A DNA stretch of 64,000 bases from Clostridia bacterium (GTDB lineage: Bacteria > Bacillota > Clostridia > Oscillospirales > CAG-382). Below are positions 34,818 through 41,110 of this stretch, in pieces. A model generated the notes under the pieces. That model was not told the origin of the DNA, searched no databases, and worked only from the letters and a program-made list of their open reading frames with translations. Each line of letters opens with the position of its first letter. Positions within the stretch are counted from its first letter, which is position 1. Where the stretch lies: positions 1 to 64,000 of the forward strand of contig JAFSCS010000032.1 of the NCBI GenBank assembly GCA_017436675.1, given 5' to 3'. A program made the position numbers and the translations under genes.

Positions 34818-34821
34818 AAAT

Positions 34822-34987
34822 GCTACCCACTTTAAAATGAGTAGCATTTCAATTTTATTTTTTTCAAACGCGTAATTTACACCTTTAGAATAAGAGAATT
34901 GAACGCATTAAATGTAGGAAATTTTGAAGAAAACCGAGCGTCGCCAAAATTTGTAAGGCAGTCGAGAGTTTTCTTCAAAGCGTTTGA
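34822..34987 (-). repeat. structured repeat unit A (terminator hairpin plus 124-bp element)
   Basis: The unit consists of a 10-bp terminator-type hairpin at 34822-34845 (on the minus strand GCTACTCATT/AGTGGGTAGC with a 4-nt loop) and a 124-bp element at 34864-34987. The element is bounded by inverted ends TCAAACGC and GCGTTTGA and contains a long hairpin, GAAGAAAAC facing GTTTTCTTC. Units D and E have exactly the same element length. On the minus strand it lies downstream of the solute-binding gene at 35102. Confidence 0.85.
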
Positions 34988-35021
34988 GAATAAAATAAAA
35001 CTAAAAGTACCTATAAAAAAT

Positions 35022-35100
35022 GCTACCCACTTTAGAATGAGTAGCATTTCACTTTTATTTTTTTTCAAACGCGTAATTTACACCTTTAATGCGTTCAAAG
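35022..35100 (-). repeat. structured repeat unit B, left end only, as 3' UTR of SBP gene 2
   Basis: The hairpin at 35022-35045 has the same stem as unit A and is followed by a T-run on the minus strand. The left end of the element (TCAAACGCGTAATTTACACC, 35065 onward) runs straight to the stop codon of the solute-binding gene at 35102. The hairpin is therefore the likely terminator of that gene. Confidence 0.85.
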
Positions 35101-35101
35101 A

Positions 35102-36625
35102 TTATTTCATGTTTTCTATAGCAGTGATTATATCTTGAATGTCACTGTTTGCTTTTTCCATCGCAGCATCAACCTTGGATTGAACGTTGGTGTCATTGGT
35201 TGAAAGAAGCGTGTGGAGAAGCGCAGGGAATCCACCGATAGCGTGGATCATACCGAGCTCACAACCGGAGTTCGTGAAGATGATGTCGAGCATATCCTTG
35301 CTGCGCTCGTCGGTCGTCTTTTGAAGCTTGCAAAGCTTTTCAATGTAAGCAGGTGTGAGAAGATTTTTGCCTTGAACAGCCATCTCTTCCATAACAGCGG
35401 AAACGAATCCTTCTTCAGCAGTGTCAATGATGTAGGGAACACCAACACCGAGACCGCCCCACGGGGAGATAAGTGCATAGTAGTCTTCTTGGTTCTCGTC
35501 GTATTTCGGGTGCGGCAAGAATCCGAAGTCGCCCGTCATCTGACCGATAACCTTCGCAATGTTACCCGTGTGGTCGGGCATAAAGAGTGTTCTGTTTTCG
35601 ATAAAAGTGTCAAAACCTTCTTGAATTTGAACAGTCTTTTCATTAACTGTTAAATAGTTGCCTTCTTGTGTGAGATATTCGAGCGCCTTTTGGATCTTAG
35701 TGATGCTCGTCTCGGAGTTGAGGTTAACAACAGGAAGTCCATTGGCATCCTTCTTAACAGTAGGCTCACCGCAAGCATACGCGATCGCCCACATAATAGA
35801 AGCCTGACCAACAAGTCCATATTGATCTCTTGCAGTCCAAGCAGGATCGCCATCGAGGTCTTTTTTGAGGTCTTTTGTGATCTCAAACATCTTGTCATAC
35901 GTCCATTTGTTTGTATCAACTAATTCATAAAGATCCGGAACACCGTTGTTGGCTTGAACGGTTTTGTTGAAATAGAGCAGATAAATGCAGTTGATGTGAG
36001 CAAAGCTGATGTCACCAACGGCATAGTATATGCTGTCCTTGATAGAGGTGTCATTAATGAACGTCTGGCTCCACCATTCACCTTGAAGCCCGTTGAGATG
36101 CTCAAGGTTTGTAAGATCGGTCAAACAGCCCGCCGTAGTCAAAAACGCCATATTGTAAAGTGAACCCTCAGCCATATGGAACGAGGCAGTTCCGCTGTTG
36201 TTGGCATCAACAACGTGATTGTAGAACGAAGAACCTGCACCGCCGCCGGGATAGGAGTCTCTGTGTACCTCCTCCTTGATGTCAACGTCAAGACGCTCTT
36301 CAACTCGGTTGATCCTCTCGATAGAAGCATCGTTAACAACGTTGCTCTCAAATTCATATTCATCAGATCCACCGAAATACATCATCGTCGCAGGAGTGAT
36401 GTCAAACGCATATCCGGAAAAAATAATGAACTCATCACCGTTAAATTTGAGATCCTCGGGAAGCCCCGAAACATATTCGGTCTCAGATGTAGTGCCCGAG
36501 GTGTTTTCTTCGACAGAAACGTCGTTTACCGAAACATCCTTAGAGCCTTCGTCAGCGGGTTGACAAGAGCAAAGAAGTGCCAACACCATAACGAAAACAA
36601 GACCAAAGCTAAGTACCTTTTTCAT
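35102..36625 (-). CDS. extracellular solute-binding lipoprotein (copy 2)
   Basis: A 507-residue predicted lipoprotein: signal peptide with lipobox ALLCSC at about residue 20, a Ser/Thr/Val/Asp-rich linker to about 45, then a bilobal substrate-binding protein of the family 1 (sugar ABC transporter) kind. The C-terminal part has FLPHPKYDENQEDYYALISPWGG. It is clearly paralogous to the gene at 37272-38798. No permease or ATPase gene is near, so its transporter must be elsewhere. The start at 36625 is chosen because the signal peptide begins there. It has its own promoter and structured 3' UTR. Confidence 0.88.
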   Translation of the reverse strand: MKKVLSFGLVFVMVLALLCSCQPADEGSKDVSVNDVSVEENTSGTTSETEYVSGLPEDLKFNGDEFIIFSGYAFDITPATMMYFGGSDEYEFESNVVNDASIERINRVEERLDVDIKEEVHRDSYPGGGAGSSFYNHVVDANNSGTASFHMAEGSLYNMAFLTTAGCLTDLTNLEHLNGLQGEWWSQTFINDTSIKDSIYYAVGDISFAHINCIYLLYFNKTVQANNGVPDLYELVDTNKWTYDKMFEITKDLKKDLDGDPAWTARDQYGLVGQASIMWAIAYACGEPTVKKDANGLPVVNLNSETSITKIQKALEYLTQEGNYLTVNEKTVQIQEGFDTFIENRTLFMPDHTGNIAKVIGQMTGDFGFLPHPKYDENQEDYYALISPWGGLGVGVPYIIDTAEEGFVSAVMEEMAVQGKNLLTPAYIEKLCKLQKTTDERSKDMLDIIFTNSGCELGMIHAIGGFPALLHTLLSTNDTNVQSKVDAAMEKANSDIQDIITAIENMK

Positions 36626-36681
36626 AGTAATTTCATACCTTTCAAAGTATATTGATTGCGCACATATGTGCATTTGTAACA

Positions 36682-36710
36682 ATTATAACAAACATCCCCA
36701 AATATGTCAA
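36682..36710 (-). promoter_or_regulatory. sigma-A promoter of solute-binding gene 2
   Basis: On the minus strand: TTGACA, 17 bp, TATAAT. Confidence 0.85.
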
Positions 36711-36724
36711 TCCCCTAAGCTATA

Positions 36725-36753
36725 CAGTCGAGAGTTTTCTTCAAAGCGTTTGA
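36725..36753 (-). repeat. structured repeat C, right end only
   Basis: CAGTCGAGAG, then TTTTCTTCAAAGCGTTTGA, is the right end of the 124-bp element, cut off just upstream of the solute-binding gene 2 promoter. Together with the left end at 35065 it frames that gene. Confidence 0.85.
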
Positions 36754-36794
36754 AAAATAAAATAAAACTAAAAGTACCTTTAAAACGAAGAAAA

Positions 36795-36967
36795 GCTACC
36801 TATTTTGCAATAGGTAGCAGATCATAGAAATAATTAAATTATTTCAAACGCGTAATTTACACCTTTAGAATAAGAGAGTTGAACGCATTAAAGGTAGGAA
36901 ATTTTGAAGAAAACCGAGCGTCGCCTTACTTTGTAAGGCAGTCGAGAGTTTTCTTCAAAGCGTTTGA
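36795..36967 (-). repeat. structured repeat unit D
   Basis: The hairpin at 36795-36818 (minus strand GCTACCTATT/AATAGGTAGC) and the 124-bp element at 36844-36967. Its inner stem GCCTTAC/GTAAGGC is perfect. The hairpin differs from units A, B and F by changes on both arms that keep pairing. Confidence 0.88.
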
Positions 36968-36999
36968 AATATAATAAAATTAAGTACCGCTAAAAAAAT

Positions 37000-37164
37000 G
37001 CTACCCATTTTGTAATAGGTAGCATTTAATCTAATTTTTTTCAAACGCGTAATTTACACCTTTAGAATGAGAGAGTTGAACGCATTAAAGGTAAGAAATT
37101 TTGAAGAAAACCGAGCGTCGCCTTACTGCGTAAGTCAGTCGAGAGTTTTCTTCAAAGCGTTTGA
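37000..37164 (-). repeat. structured repeat unit E
   Basis: The hairpin at 37000-37023 (minus strand GCTACCTATT/AATGGGTAGC, with one G-U pair) and the 124-bp element at 37041-37164, with the inner stem GACTTAC/GTAAGGC carrying one mismatch. Confidence 0.88.
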
Positions 37165-37193
37165 TAATAAAACTAAAAGTACCTATAAAAAAT

Positions 37194-37270
37194 GCTACCC
37201 ACTTTAGAATGAGTAGCATTTCAATTATGTTTTTTCAAACGCGTAATTTACACCTTTAATGCGTTCAAAG
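37194..37270 (-). repeat. structured repeat unit F, left end only, as 3' UTR of SBP gene 1
   Basis: The hairpin at 37194-37217 and the element left end from 37235 adjoin the stop codon of the solute-binding gene at 37272. The arrangement equals unit B. It is the likely terminator of that gene. Confidence 0.85.
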
Positions 37271-37271
37271 A

Positions 37272-38798
37272 TTATTGCATGTTTTGAACTGCATTGATAA
37301 GTGCTTGAATGTCGCTTTCAGCTTGAGAAACCTTACCGTCGATGGTAGATTTAACGTTGGTGTTCTTGGAAGAAAGCATAACTTGGATGTCAGATTGCAA
37401 GTTACCGAACTTGTGGATCATACCGAGCTCACAACCGGAGTTTGTAAATACGATGTCGAGCATGTCTTTACTTCTCTCGTCAGTTGTCTTTTGAAGCTTA
37501 CAAAGTTTTTCGATGTAAGCGCCCGTAAGAACGTTCTTACCTTGAACAGCCATTTCTTCCATAACAGCAGAAACGAAATCTTCTTGGTCAGTGTCGAGTG
37601 TGTAAGGAACAGTAATACCCATACCGCCCCACGGGGAGATGAGAGAGTAGTAATCTTCTTGGTTTTCGTCGTATTTCGGGTGCGGCAAGAAGCCGAAGTC
37701 ACCTGTCATTTGACCGATAACTCTTGCAATGTTACCTGTGTGGTCAGGCATAAAGAGTGTTCTGTCTTCCCAGAATGTTGCAAATCCTTGATCAACAGTT
37801 GTTGTGGAACCGTCAACGATGAGGTAGTTGCCGTCTTGTGTGAGGTACTCAAGAACGGATTGAAGCTTAGTAACGCTCGTGTCGGAGTTGATGTTAAGAG
37901 CGGGAAGTCCGTCAGCGTCCTTTTTAGCAATGTTAGCATCGGTAGCATAGGAGATAGCCCACATAATAGAAGTTTGACCAACGAGACCATACGCGTCAGC
38001 ATATGTGAATTTACCGTCGTTATCAAGGTCTTCCTTGAGGTCTTTTGTGATCTCGAACATCTTGTCATATGTCCATTGGTTGTTGTCAACGAGTGTGTAG
38101 AGATCAGGAATGTCATTGTCCTTTTGAACGTTCTTGTTGTAGAAGAGCAAATAGATGCAGTTGATGTGACCGAAGGAGATGTCACCAACAGCGTAGTAGT
38201 TGCTGCCTTCGATGGAAACGTCTTCGTTGAACTTTTGGCTCCACCATTCACCTTCGAGATTGTTGAGGTATTTGAGAGTCATAAGGTCGGTGAGACAACC
38301 TGCGGTTGTCAAATAACCCATGTTGTAAAGCGAACCGGTCGTCATGTGGAATTCGCTTGTACCGGCGTTGTTAGCATCGAGAACTTCATTGTAGTAAGAG
38401 GAGGAAGCACCGCCGCCTGCTTGGCTGTCTTTTGTCATTCTTTCGATGATATCAACGTCAAGCTTTTCTTCAACGATGTTGATTCTTTCGATGGAAGCGT
38501 CGTTTACAACGTTGCTTTCGAGCTCGTATTCGTCAGAGCCACCGAAGAAAGCCATAGTAGCGCTTGTGATTTCGAACGTGTAACCGGAAAGAATAACGAA
38601 TTCTTCGCCGTCAAACTTAAGATCTGCGGGAAGTCCGGAAACGTATTCGTTTGATGAAGTAGTACCGCTTGTGTTGGTGTCGGTAGAAGCATCAACGTTT
38701 GTCGATACGTCTTTTGATGTCTCGCCGTCAGGTCCGCAAGCACAAAGGAGCGCCAAAACCATAAGACCAACGAGCATCACGCTGAGGATTCTTTTCAT
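37272..38798 (-). CDS. extracellular solute-binding lipoprotein (copy 1)
   Basis: A 508-residue paralogue of the lipoprotein at 35102-36625, with the same order: lipobox ALLCAC near residue 20, a Ser/Thr/Asp-rich linker, then a bilobal family 1-type solute-binding domain. Long identical stretches such as FLPHPKYDENQEDYY and LCKLQKTTDERSKDMLDI show recent duplication. The start at 38798 has AAAGGG nine bases upstream. It has its own promoter, and no transporter subunits are nearby. The likely ligand is an oligosaccharide, by family only. Confidence 0.88.
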   Translation of the reverse strand: MKRILSVMLVGLMVLALLCACGPDGETSKDVSTNVDASTDTNTSGTTSSNEYVSGLPADLKFDGEEFVILSGYTFEITSATMAFFGGSDEYELESNVVNDASIERINIVEEKLDVDIIERMTKDSQAGGGASSSYYNEVLDANNAGTSEFHMTTGSLYNMGYLTTAGCLTDLMTLKYLNNLEGEWWSQKFNEDVSIEGSNYYAVGDISFGHINCIYLLFYNKNVQKDNDIPDLYTLVDNNQWTYDKMFEITKDLKEDLDNDGKFTYADAYGLVGQTSIMWAISYATDANIAKKDADGLPALNINSDTSVTKLQSVLEYLTQDGNYLIVDGSTTTVDQGFATFWEDRTLFMPDHTGNIARVIGQMTGDFGFLPHPKYDENQEDYYSLISPWGGMGITVPYTLDTDQEDFVSAVMEEMAVQGKNVLTGAYIEKLCKLQKTTDERSKDMLDIVFTNSGCELGMIHKFGNLQSDIQVMLSSKNTNVKSTIDGKVSQAESDIQALINAVQNMQ

Positions 38799-38851
38799 TG
38801 GATTTAACCCTTTCATAATAATTTTTAGCATTTCTATGCCATTATGGAGAT

Positions 38852-38880
38852 ATTTTACCAAAAATATCGCATCGTGTCAA
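38852..38880 (-). promoter_or_regulatory. sigma-A promoter of solute-binding gene 1
   Basis: On the minus strand: TTGACA, 17 bp, TAAAAT with TGG before the -10. Confidence 0.85.
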
Positions 38881-38994: not shown

Positions 38995-39057
38995 TTTCAT
39001 ATTTTTGGTAGCAGAGCTGAGTGCTTGAATGTCAGCTTCAGCTTGAGAGACCTCGGA
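38995..39057 (-). pseudogene. relic of a third solute-binding gene (3' end only)
   Basis: On the minus strand this stretch encodes VSQAEADIQALSSATKNM, matching the last residues VSQAESDIQALINAVQNM of the copy 1 protein. The stop codon is lost and similarity ends on both sides. A hairpin, ACTCACG/CGTGAGT (38953-38974), lies just downstream on the same strand and may be the old terminator. The rest of 38881-39146 is AT-rich and shows no gene. Confidence 0.85.
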
Positions 39058-39146
39058 ATTAATATATAAAAAGTAAAATAAAAATGAATAAAATGAAAAA
39101 ATATGAATAAAATAATGAAAAACGTTAATAAAATATTAAAAAATCG

Positions 39147-39215: not shown

Positions 39216-40070
39216 ATGAAAAAACTTCTTTGTTTCGCTTTAGTATCCGTAATGATGCTCGCTTGCGTGCTCAGCGCGTCCGCAGCAGCAACCGACGGCT
39301 ACGTTACAGACGGACTCGAGGCTTTCTATGATGCAGCGGAAAATAACGAAGCAACAACGTGGAAAGACCTTAGCGGAAAGGGCAACGATATCGTTGATCT
39401 CCCCAACACAGACACATGTAAATTTGTTGACGGTGCATACCTCAATACCGCAACAAAAGTCTATTTCCCTTCCGGAATTCCCGCTATCATCAATGAGAAA
39501 GATGCTTGGACAACGGAATTCGTGTTCGGTAACGTTGACGTAACAGGCGTAATGTGGGGAACACTCGCTAACTGTAATAACGACGCATATTCTTTGTTCT
39601 ACCTCGTAAGCGGTGGAAACCTCGTTTTGAAGAACAACGGATCAACAGCTAACCCCCGTCCGACATACACATTGCCCGGCGGATTTGCTGATCTCTCCAA
39701 TAAAACTGTATCCGTAACGTTCGAAAACGGCGTTGCATCAAAGATCTATATCGACGGTGTAGAAGTAGCTTCCGCAGTTCCTGCTGCAGCTCTCACGATC
39801 GGTGATAACTTCTTCTTCGGTCACGACGATGCTAATAAATCTCACACAACAGAGTATAAAGCAATGAGATTCTACAGCCGTGCACTCACAGCTGATGAGA
39901 TCGCTAAAAACGTAGCAGCAGATAAAGCAGTTGACGCTCCCGAAACAAGCGAACCCGCAACCACTCCCGAGGTAGATCCTCCCGCAACAGGCGACGGCGC
40001 AATGGTATTCGCACTCATCGCTCTCGTAGCAATGGCAGGCGTAGTTGTTGTTAAAAAGAACGCAAGATAA
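39216..40070 (+). CDS. LamG-domain surface protein with sortase-type tail (copy 1)
   Basis: A 284-residue exported protein. The signal peptide (residues 1-24) ends in ASA. A LamG/concanavalin-like domain (about 28-230) begins DGLEAFYDAAEN and WKDLSGKGND. A Pro/Thr/Glu-rich stalk (EPATTPEVDPP) leads to a C-terminal sorting region: PATGD, a hydrophobic helix and the charged end KKNAR. PATGD stands where LPxTG would be, so anchoring to the wall by a sortase is likely but uses a non-standard motif. The next gene encodes a near twin. Confidence 0.85.
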   Translation: MKKLLCFALVSVMMLACVLSASAAATDGYVTDGLEAFYDAAENNEATTWKDLSGKGNDIVDLPNTDTCKFVDGAYLNTATKVYFPSGIPAIINEKDAWTTEFVFGNVDVTGVMWGTLANCNNDAYSLFYLVSGGNLVLKNNGSTANPRPTYTLPGGFADLSNKTVSVTFENGVASKIYIDGVEVASAVPAAALTIGDNFFFGHDDANKSHTTEYKAMRFYSRALTADEIAKNVAADKAVDAPETSEPATTPEVDPPATGDGAMVFALIALVAMAGVVVVKKNAR

Positions 40071-40197: not shown

Positions 40198-40226
40198 TTG
40201 ACAACACCGTGCAATAATGGTAAAAT
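40198..40226 (+). promoter_or_regulatory. sigma-A promoter of LamG surface protein 2
   Basis: TTGACA, 17-bp spacer, TAAAAT with TGG before the -10. The promoter differs in sequence from that of copy 1 although the coding starts are nearly identical. Confidence 0.8.
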
Positions 40227-40264
40227 GTTTATATAAAATAATAAATAAAGAAAGGGCAAACATA

Positions 40265-41110
40265 ATGAAAAAACTTCTTTGTTTCGCTTTAGTATCCGTA
40301 ATGATGCTCGCTTGCGTGCTCAGCGCGTCCGCAGCAGCAACCGATGGCTACGTTACAGACGGACTCGAGGCTTTCTATGATGCAGCGGAAAATACCGAAG
40401 CAACAACTTGGAAAGACCTTAGCGGTAAGGGCAACGATATCGTTGATCTTCCCAACACAGACACATGTAAATTTGTTGACGGTGCATACCTCAATACCGC
40501 AACAAAAGTTTATTTCCCCTCCGGAATTCCCGCTATCATCAACGAGAAAGATGCTTGGACAACGGAATTCGTGTTCGGTTCGATCGAATTGACAGGAACA
40601 ACATGGGGCACACTCGCTAACTGTAACAACGACTATTACTCCTTGTTCTACGGCGTTGGACTCAATAGCATCATCTTGAAGAACCAAAGTAACGCACGTC
40701 CTACCTTCGCATTGGAGGGCGGAATCCAAGACCTCGCAAATAAAACAGTCTCCGTAACGTTTGAAAAAGGCGTAGCATCCAAGATCTATATCGACGGTGT
40801 AGAGGTTGCTTCCGCAGTTCCTGAGATCGCACTTGCAATCGGCGATAACTTCTTCTTCGGACATAGCGATGCCGCTAAATCTCATACAACAGAGTATAAA
40901 GCAATGAGATTCTACAGCCGTGCACTCACAGCTGACGAGATCGCTAAAAACGTAGCAGCAGATAAAGCAGTTGACGCTCCCGAAACAAGCGAGCCCGCAA
41001 CTACTCCCGAGGTAGATCCTCCCGCAACAGGCGACGGCGCAATGGTATTCGCATTCATCGCTCTCGTAGCAATGGCAGGCGTAGTTGTTGTTAAAAAGAA
41101 CGCAAGATAA
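40265..41110 (+). CDS. LamG-domain surface protein with sortase-type tail (copy 2)
   Basis: A 281-residue near twin of the preceding protein. The first 100 and last 90 residues are almost identical, including the signal peptide, the PATGD motif and the tail. The difference is concentrated in the middle of the LamG domain (for example VFGSIELTGTTWG against VFGNVDVTGVMWG, and IILKNQSNARPT against LVLKNNGSTANPRPT). That pattern suggests the pair diverges at its binding face while gene conversion keeps the ends alike. The start at 40265 follows AAAGGG. Confidence 0.85.
   Translation: MKKLLCFALVSVMMLACVLSASAAATDGYVTDGLEAFYDAAENTEATTWKDLSGKGNDIVDLPNTDTCKFVDGAYLNTATKVYFPSGIPAIINEKDAWTTEFVFGSIELTGTTWGTLANCNNDYYSLFYGVGLNSIILKNQSNARPTFALEGGIQDLANKTVSVTFEKGVASKIYIDGVEVASAVPEIALAIGDNFFFGHSDAAKSHTTEYKAMRFYSRALTADEIAKNVAADKAVDAPETSEPATTPEVDPPATGDGAMVFAFIALVAMAGVVVVKKNAR

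What the first reader, a model, noticed from the sequence alone, without database searches (positions are those of the whole stretch)
34818..37270. A family of covarying, 124-bp structured repeats downstream of solute-binding genes
Three full elements (34864-34987, 36844-36967, 37041-37164) have exactly the same length and share inverted ends, TCAAACGC and GCGTTTGA, plus an internal hairpin (GAAGAAAAC/GTTTTCTTC). Each is followed on the minus strand by a 10-bp terminator hairpin. Comparing copies, stem positions change on both arms: C-G in A, B and F becomes U-A in D and E, with U-G, C-G and U-A exchanges elsewhere. This is the mark of selected RNA structure. I know no named element of this form. 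It could be a small RNA family, a 3'-end stabiliser or a mobile palindromic element.
Basis: seen in the sequence. Interest (0 to 1): 0.65.

Follow-up and report, generated by a model that had tools for sequence, protein, structure and literature searches.

The report
Terminator-targeting miniature mobile DNA element
The repeats are copies of a small gene-less mobile DNA element that jumps into the stop signals (transcription terminators) at the ends of genes in gut Clostridia, copies the whole stop-signal hairpin as it lands, and carries a spare stop signal of its own.

Summary
The true unit is ~193-225 bp: an outer stem (P1) closing a three-way junction of an inner stem holding a terminator hairpin (P2) and a long hairpin (H1) with a nearly invariant core (CGACTG...CGACGCTCG). 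The window holds two tandem arrays of it. A covariance model finds dispersed copies in 20 of 63 genomes of the same family (up to 29 per genome; five more in this genome) and weaker relatives in two other families of the class. Elsewhere most copies sit in intrinsic terminators: a perfect hairpin abuts the element in 42 of 75 copies (background 1 of 75), and 31 of 70 testable copies are flanked by a direct duplication of the whole hairpin. Three orthologous sites in related genomes are empty, with one hairpin. So this is a non-autonomous, MITE-like mobile element that targets terminators, duplicates the hairpin and carries its own terminator. Stems show no G-U excess, arguing for DNA-level pairing rather than a conserved RNA. 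No autonomous partner was found; IS1182, Y1 and reverse-transcriptase genes do not track the element. New element family of a known kind, with an unusual target duplication.

The parts
37076..37268 (-). Array A, unit 1: the complete element (193 bp), starting a few bp after the stop codon of the gene at 37272-38861
   Evidence: CM match 37071-37275, 160.8 bits; fold -69 kcal/mol, z -10.3
37252..37268 (-). P1 outer stem, 5' arm TTGAACGCATTAAAGGT
   Evidence: perfect 17-nt complement of 37076-37092 (I13)
37076..37092 (-). P1 outer stem, 3' arm ACCTTTAATGCGTTCAA
   Evidence: I13; P1 covaries in 23 copies
37235..37242 (-). P2 inner stem, 5' arm GCGTTTGA
   Evidence: P2 92% paired, 9/9 pairs with double changes
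37190..37221 (-). Internal terminator-like hairpin with T-tract, enclosed by P2
   Evidence: sequence, repeat family D5
37157..37164 (-). P2 inner stem, 3' arm TCAAACGC
37100..37156 (-). H1 hairpin with the conserved core CTCGACTG...CGACGCTCG
   Evidence: arms 96% paired in 23 copies
36879..37064 (-). Array A, unit 2 (outer 10 nt of P1 5' arm missing, replaced by CTCTCTCATTC at 37065-37075)
   Evidence: CM match 36874-37087
36725..36867 (-). Array A, unit 3, cut off inside H1, just upstream of the promoter of the next gene
   Evidence: BLAST match; sequence; promoter-like site
34899..35098 (-). Array B, unit 1: complete element after the gene at 35102-36682 (apical stem of H1 disrupted in this copy)
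   Evidence: CM match 34894-35105, 158.3 bits
34818..34887 (-). Array B, unit 2: partial copy (P1 inner part, P2 5' arm, terminator hairpin 34818-34849)
   Evidence: D2, D5
37272..38861 (-). Upstream gene, lipoprotein-like; 70% identical to the next gene
   Evidence: identity; no family match
35102..36682 (-). Upstream gene of array B, paralogue of the above

Best explanation
A non-autonomous, MITE-like mobile DNA element with no gene of its own. Shown by sequence comparison: (1) its typical (class A) copies begin (T)CAGA..GAAGACAAA and end with an extra hairpin such as CAGTTTGCAGACTTTGTCTGCAAACTG; (2) they lie in intrinsic terminators, mostly between convergent genes, and the whole palindromic hairpin (about 21-34 bp) is present as a direct repeat on both sides; (3) related genomes have the same terminator once and no element; (4) the element carries a terminator-like hairpin of its own. 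Inferred: an enzyme acting in trans recognises the folded or palindromic ends, cuts the target at both feet of the terminator palindrome (probably as an extruded cruciform or hairpin), and fill-in duplicates the hairpin. Landing behind genes, leaving an intact hairpin copy next to the T-tract and bringing a spare terminator make insertions nearly harmless. The window copies are a local form: tandem arrays starting right after a stop codon, without target repeats, in which the element now seems to serve as the gene's terminator.
For: Dispersed copies: 20 of 63 genomes of the family, up to 29 matches per genome; five further copies in this genome. Identity within a genome up to 98-99%. Direct repeats: 33 of 70 copies exceed a cross-copy control threshold passed by 0.7% of controls, 31 after removing two caused by another repeat or an insertion; the borders are constant and nearly all repeats are palindromic. 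A perfect hairpin with arms of 7 bp or more abuts the left end in 42 of 75 copies against 1 of 75 in background. Empty sites: G058 against G050 (L293/L137), G005 against G017 (L289/L201), G039 against G017 (L292/L202). Gene ends: 64 of 75 have a same-strand reading frame ending within 160 nt upstream, 45 of 75 lie between convergent frames. Folding and covariation. A related form with the same end layout lies in terminators in another family (G571).
Against: No autonomous partner found: every right-end hairpin hit checked belongs to a short element and extra left-end hits are truncated, deleted or chance copies. About half of the copies, including all in the window, show no target repeat. Terminal repeats are imperfect and differ among subfamilies. 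The enzyme, the strand used and the cutting model are inference. The genomes are MAGs; repeats sit at contig ends, so copy counts are lower bounds and an autonomous copy could be missing.
Confidence: 0.75

Rival explanations
1. A conserved regulatory or small RNA (3'-UTR element or terminator-generated sRNA) kept by selection on RNA structure and spread by duplication.
For: All four helices covary far above shuffled and slid controls; the H1 core is nearly invariant across genera and is recognisable in other families; most copies are read in sense with an upstream gene.
Against: G-T pairs are no commoner than A-C in P1, P2 and H1 (19 vs 28), unlike in the internal terminator (62 vs 30); the internal terminator should stop transcripts before H1 is made; no regulon (many unrelated genes); target duplications and empty sites show movement; no Rfam match.
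Confidence: 0.12
2. A retro-mobilised structured RNA (group IIC-like or SINE-like): the RNA is copied into DNA at terminator hairpins by a reverse transcriptase.
For: Terminators are the known target of group IIC introns (own knowledge); variable-length target repeats occur in target-primed reverse transcription (own knowledge); RNA-foldable covarying structure.
Against: RVT_1 is found in only 6 of 20 element-bearing genomes and not in G020 (97% complete, 15 matches) or G051 (29 matches); no group II intron match; no G-U excess.
Confidence: 0.06
3. The element moves as a folded single DNA strand by a Y1/HUH or tyrosine-recombinase system, so covariation is required for recognition.
For: Covariation without G-U excess fits ssDNA; REP/IS200 and attC systems work on folded strands (own knowledge).
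Against: Y1_Tnp is present in 1 of 20 element-bearing genomes; those systems are not known to duplicate a 21-34 bp target (own knowledge). Other HUH or tyrosine enzymes were not searched.
Confidence: 0.12
4. A host terminator module: bidirectional terminators amplified by recombination and template switching, the covariation arising from palindrome correction during replication rather than selection.
For: The element contains a terminator; tandem arrays exist (window, L184, L190, L204); target hairpin copies also change in compensated fashion (L171).
Against: Does not predict constant element ends next to unrelated duplicated hairpins, nor empty sites.
Confidence: 0.06

Closest known systems
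SPRITE, RUP and BOX repeats of Streptococcus pneumoniae (PMC3049150)
   Same: Short gene-less AT-rich repeats with strong stem-loops, enriched between convergent genes; SPRITE resembles a terminator and lies near 3' ends of genes
   Different: SPRITE is a single long stem with a U-rich tract, ends AAAA/TTTT, and no target duplication could be shown; here a three-way junction, a conserved H1 core and duplication of the whole target hairpin
IS1272 / TnSha1, IS1182 family (PMC4923244)
   Same: Inserts into terminator hairpins recognised by structure, not sequence
   Different: IS1272/TnSha1 encodes a transposase and deletes part of the hairpin without duplication; here the hairpin is duplicated, there is no gene, and the IS1182 DDE domain was not found in any of the 20 element-bearing genomes
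MITEs in general (review PMC10969869)
   Same: Short, non-autonomous, multi-copy, intergenic, terminal inverted repeats, target repeats
   Different: No parent IS identified; terminal repeats covary rather than being fixed; the target repeat is a palindromic terminator of variable length
Group IIC introns (own knowledge)
   Same: Target intrinsic terminators
   Different: They are ribozymes moved by a reverse transcriptase, without target duplication; no intron match
REP/BIME elements with RAYT, IS200/IS605 family (own knowledge)
   Same: Small folded repeats behind genes
   Different: Mobilised by Y1 transposases, absent in 19 of 20 element-bearing genomes; no target duplication

Membership tests
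MITE | Short, without transposase gene | tested here: met
   units of 193-225 bp; no room for a transposase gene
MITE | Many dispersed copies in one genome | tested here: met
   up to 29 CM matches per genome
MITE | Terminal inverted repeats | tested here: met
   P1 joins the ends; AGACAAA at the left and TTTGTCT at the right end in 21 of 31 copies scored; the repeats are imperfect and vary between subfamilies
MITE | Target-site duplication with empty sites | tested here: met
   31 of 70 copies; three empty sites
MITE | A parent IS with the same ends | tested here: not met
   none found with the same ends; assemblies are fragmented, so not conclusive
IS1182 family (IS1272-like) | DDE transposase of that family in the genome | tested here: not met
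   PF13751 in 0 of 20 element-bearing genomes
IS1182 family (IS1272-like) | Insertion into palindromes or terminators | tested here: met
IS200/IS605 / REP-RAYT | Y1 transposase in the genome | tested here: not met
   PF01797 in 1 of 20
Group II intron | Intron domains or reverse transcriptase | tested here: not met
   no Rfam match; RVT_1 in 6 of 20
SPRITE | Single 18-bp stem, U-rich tract, AAAA/TTTT ends | tested here: not met
   three-way junction, ends CAG...CTG
Known Rfam RNA families | Score above the family's gathering cut-off | tested here: not met
Integron attC | R/L boxes and IntI | not tested
   boxes judged absent by eye only; integrase not searched

The most novel reading that the evidence does not exclude
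A transposition system of a new type: the enzyme recognises the target as an extruded terminator hairpin, cuts at both feet so that the entire hairpin is duplicated, and acts on an element recognised by its folded three-way-junction shape (hence covarying stems and a fixed H1 core) rather than by the sequence of its ends.
Probability: 0.25. Interest if true: 0.85.

Novelty: new variant of a known kind. Interest (0 to 1): 0.6.

Why it matters
In the held papers no element was found that duplicates a complete transcription terminator on insertion and carries a spare terminator; if confirmed, it shows how a parasite can settle behind essential genes (for example groEL in two species, judged from the protein's C-terminus) at little cost. 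It also warns that covariation in intergenic repeats is not by itself proof of functional RNA: comparing G-U with A-C can separate RNA-level from DNA-level pairing. The conserved H1 core, shared across families of Clostridia, is a concrete handle for finding the unknown mobilising enzyme.

Tried and rejected
Plain DNA search of the own genome found only the window locus, which would wrongly have suggested a local repeat; the covariance model corrected this. Search for an autonomous copy by right-end hairpin, left end and by the different terminal repeats in about 0.8 Mb of G584: none. IS1182, Y1 and RVT_1 as mobilisers: no co-occurrence. Plasmids, phages, viral contigs: nothing (one trivial 34-nt plasmid match). 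Rfam at relaxed threshold: only sub-threshold hits, not informative. Structure prediction of the window protein: useless, pLDDT 30, so 'solute-binding' remains unverified. Literature searches for MITEs in terminators: no described equivalent among the held papers. Integron attC considered and set aside by eye (no R/L boxes seen, 200-bp three-way junction, target duplication).

Full report
OBSERVATION. The three 124-bp stretches and their inverted ends are present as described. They recur in two tandem arrays behind two paralogous genes on the minus strand (70% identical proteins). Read on the minus strand, a full unit is: outer stem P1 (TTGAACGCATTAAAGGT, 37268->37252), a short GTAAATTAC link, inner stem P2 (GCGTTTGA), a terminator-like hairpin (37221->37190), the other arm of P2 (TCAAACGC), the H1 hairpin (37156->37100) and the other arm of P1 (ACCTTTAATGCGTTCAA, 37092->37076). 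This folds as a three-way junction at -69 kcal/mol (z -10.3) as RNA and -46.1 (z -10.0) as DNA. Array A has one complete, one nearly complete and one truncated unit; array B has one complete and one partial unit.

DISTRIBUTION. A plain DNA search found only this locus in the own genome but related copies in 13 further genomes. An exact scan for the H1 core in named genomes returned only MAGs of Clostridia, mostly from ruminants where the title names a source (goat, yak). From 23 complete copies (alignment A1) a covariance model was built (R1). It finds the element in 20 of 63 genomes of the same family, up to 29 matches per genome, patchily within genera, including five more copies in this genome. 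Among 394 genomes of the order all 12 positive genomes are of this family. Among 291 genomes of the class two genomes of other families carry several weaker matches each. By eye these keep the H1 core; in G571 they also keep the layout with the right-end hairpin and lie in terminators, while G584 has quite different terminal repeats. Viral contigs, phages and plasmids gave nothing of note.

STRUCTURE. On 23 copies, after shifting seven rows by one base where two stems were visibly out of register, P1 is 81% paired with double changes in 10 of 15 pairs, P2 92% with 9 of 9, H1 base 96% with 8 of 13 and H1 tip 94% with 3 of 8; covariation scores lie far above shuffles and above partners slid by 1-3 columns. 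The realignment was guided by the stems, so the figures lean towards the structure; the unedited alignment already gave 13 of 24 predicted pairs with compensatory changes. The H1 internal loop is nearly invariant while its stems vary. In P1+P2+H1 G-T cells (19) are no commoner than A-C cells (28); in the internal terminator G-T outnumbers A-C 62 to 30. These counts are not corrected for shared ancestry, and the terminator was scored by a different method. I infer pairing kept at DNA level (cruciform, single strand, or palindrome correction) rather than clear selection on a sense RNA.

MOBILITY. Around the class A copies lie terminator hairpins. A perfect hairpin with arms of at least 7 bp abuts the left end in 42 of 75 copies, against 1 of 75 in stretches 300 nt upstream. 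A direct repeat between left and right flank exceeds the control in 33 of 70 copies; two are due to another repeat or an insertion, leaving 31. The repeat ends next to the element's first CAG and, in most, starts about 25-31 nt past the model's end, after an extra right-end hairpin (for example CAGTTTGCAGACTTTGTCTGCAAACTG). Nearly all repeats are palindromic terminators (21-34 bp palindromes) with T-rich sequence behind the right copy and often A-rich sequence before the left. Three orthologous sites without the element have one hairpin: G058 (ATACCTCTGTCGTAACGGCAGAGGTAT once; twice around the element in G050), G005 and G039 against G017. Within-genome identity reaches 98-99%. 64 of 75 copies follow a same-strand reading frame and 45 of 75 lie between convergent frames. 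One copy in this genome (L126) sits in the loop of a terminator hairpin without a duplication.

TWO FORMS. Besides these there are copies that begin directly after a stop codon, lack the right-end hairpin and the target repeat and often form tandem arrays (the window; L184, L190, L204). In G010 and G021 the same gene (groEL, judged from its C-terminal GGM repeats) is followed by the element, so this form can be inherited vertically. In such places the element's own terminator seems to be the gene's only one (inference).

MECHANISM. Steps shown: insertion, duplication of the whole hairpin, terminator target, carried terminator-like hairpin. Steps inferred: an enzyme in trans; cuts at both feet of the palindrome; recognition of a folded or palindromic end. 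Tested mobilisers do not co-occur: IS1182 DDE 0 of 20, Y1 1 of 20, RVT_1 6 of 20 element-bearing genomes. Every right-end hairpin hit checked belongs to a short element, and the extra left-end hits show no larger element. MAG fragmentation, with repeats at contig ends, could hide an autonomous copy.

KNOWN RELATIVES. IS1272/TnSha1 enters terminator hairpins but deletes part of them (PMC4923244). SPRITE of pneumococcus is a terminator-like repeat near 3' ends without demonstrated target duplication (PMC3049150). The MITE review (PMC10969869) mentions SPRITE's terminator-like sequence but, in the passages I read, no element of the present kind. No Rfam family fits. I file it as a new MITE-like family with an unusual target mode; the parent transposase is unknown, so membership of any IS family is not claimed.

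Noticed in passing
L160, L161, L138, L139, L176, L258 (related genomes): A second short palindromic repeat (GATACCCCAAAAATGCAAGCATTTTCGGGGACCCC and variants) is nested inside several copies of the element.
   Followed up: no
window 39216-40070 and 40217-41110: Tandem pair of very similar secreted proteins with a laminin-G/concanavalin-like domain (Laminin_G_3) and a C-terminal anchor-like tail.
   Followed up: no
window 39019-39060: A fragment resembling the 3' end of the 37272-38861 gene, apparently the remnant of a third paralogue.
   Followed up: no
window 34899-35098: In this copy the apical stem of H1 is disrupted (CTTACAAATTTTGG), while nearly all other copies keep it.
   Followed up: partly
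G571 (L318-L320) and G584 (L314-L317): Copies in two other families keep the H1 core; those in G584 have quite different terminal repeats (ACTGTGCCAAAAGTGGTTAGA), so the core may be shared among several transposon types.
   Followed up: partly
L126 (G000:C14): A copy sits in the loop of a terminator hairpin without target duplication, unlike the other class A copies.
   Followed up: partly
L152: The two copies of the target hairpin have complementary loops (AAAA and TTTT), as if one hairpin had been inverted.
   Followed up: no
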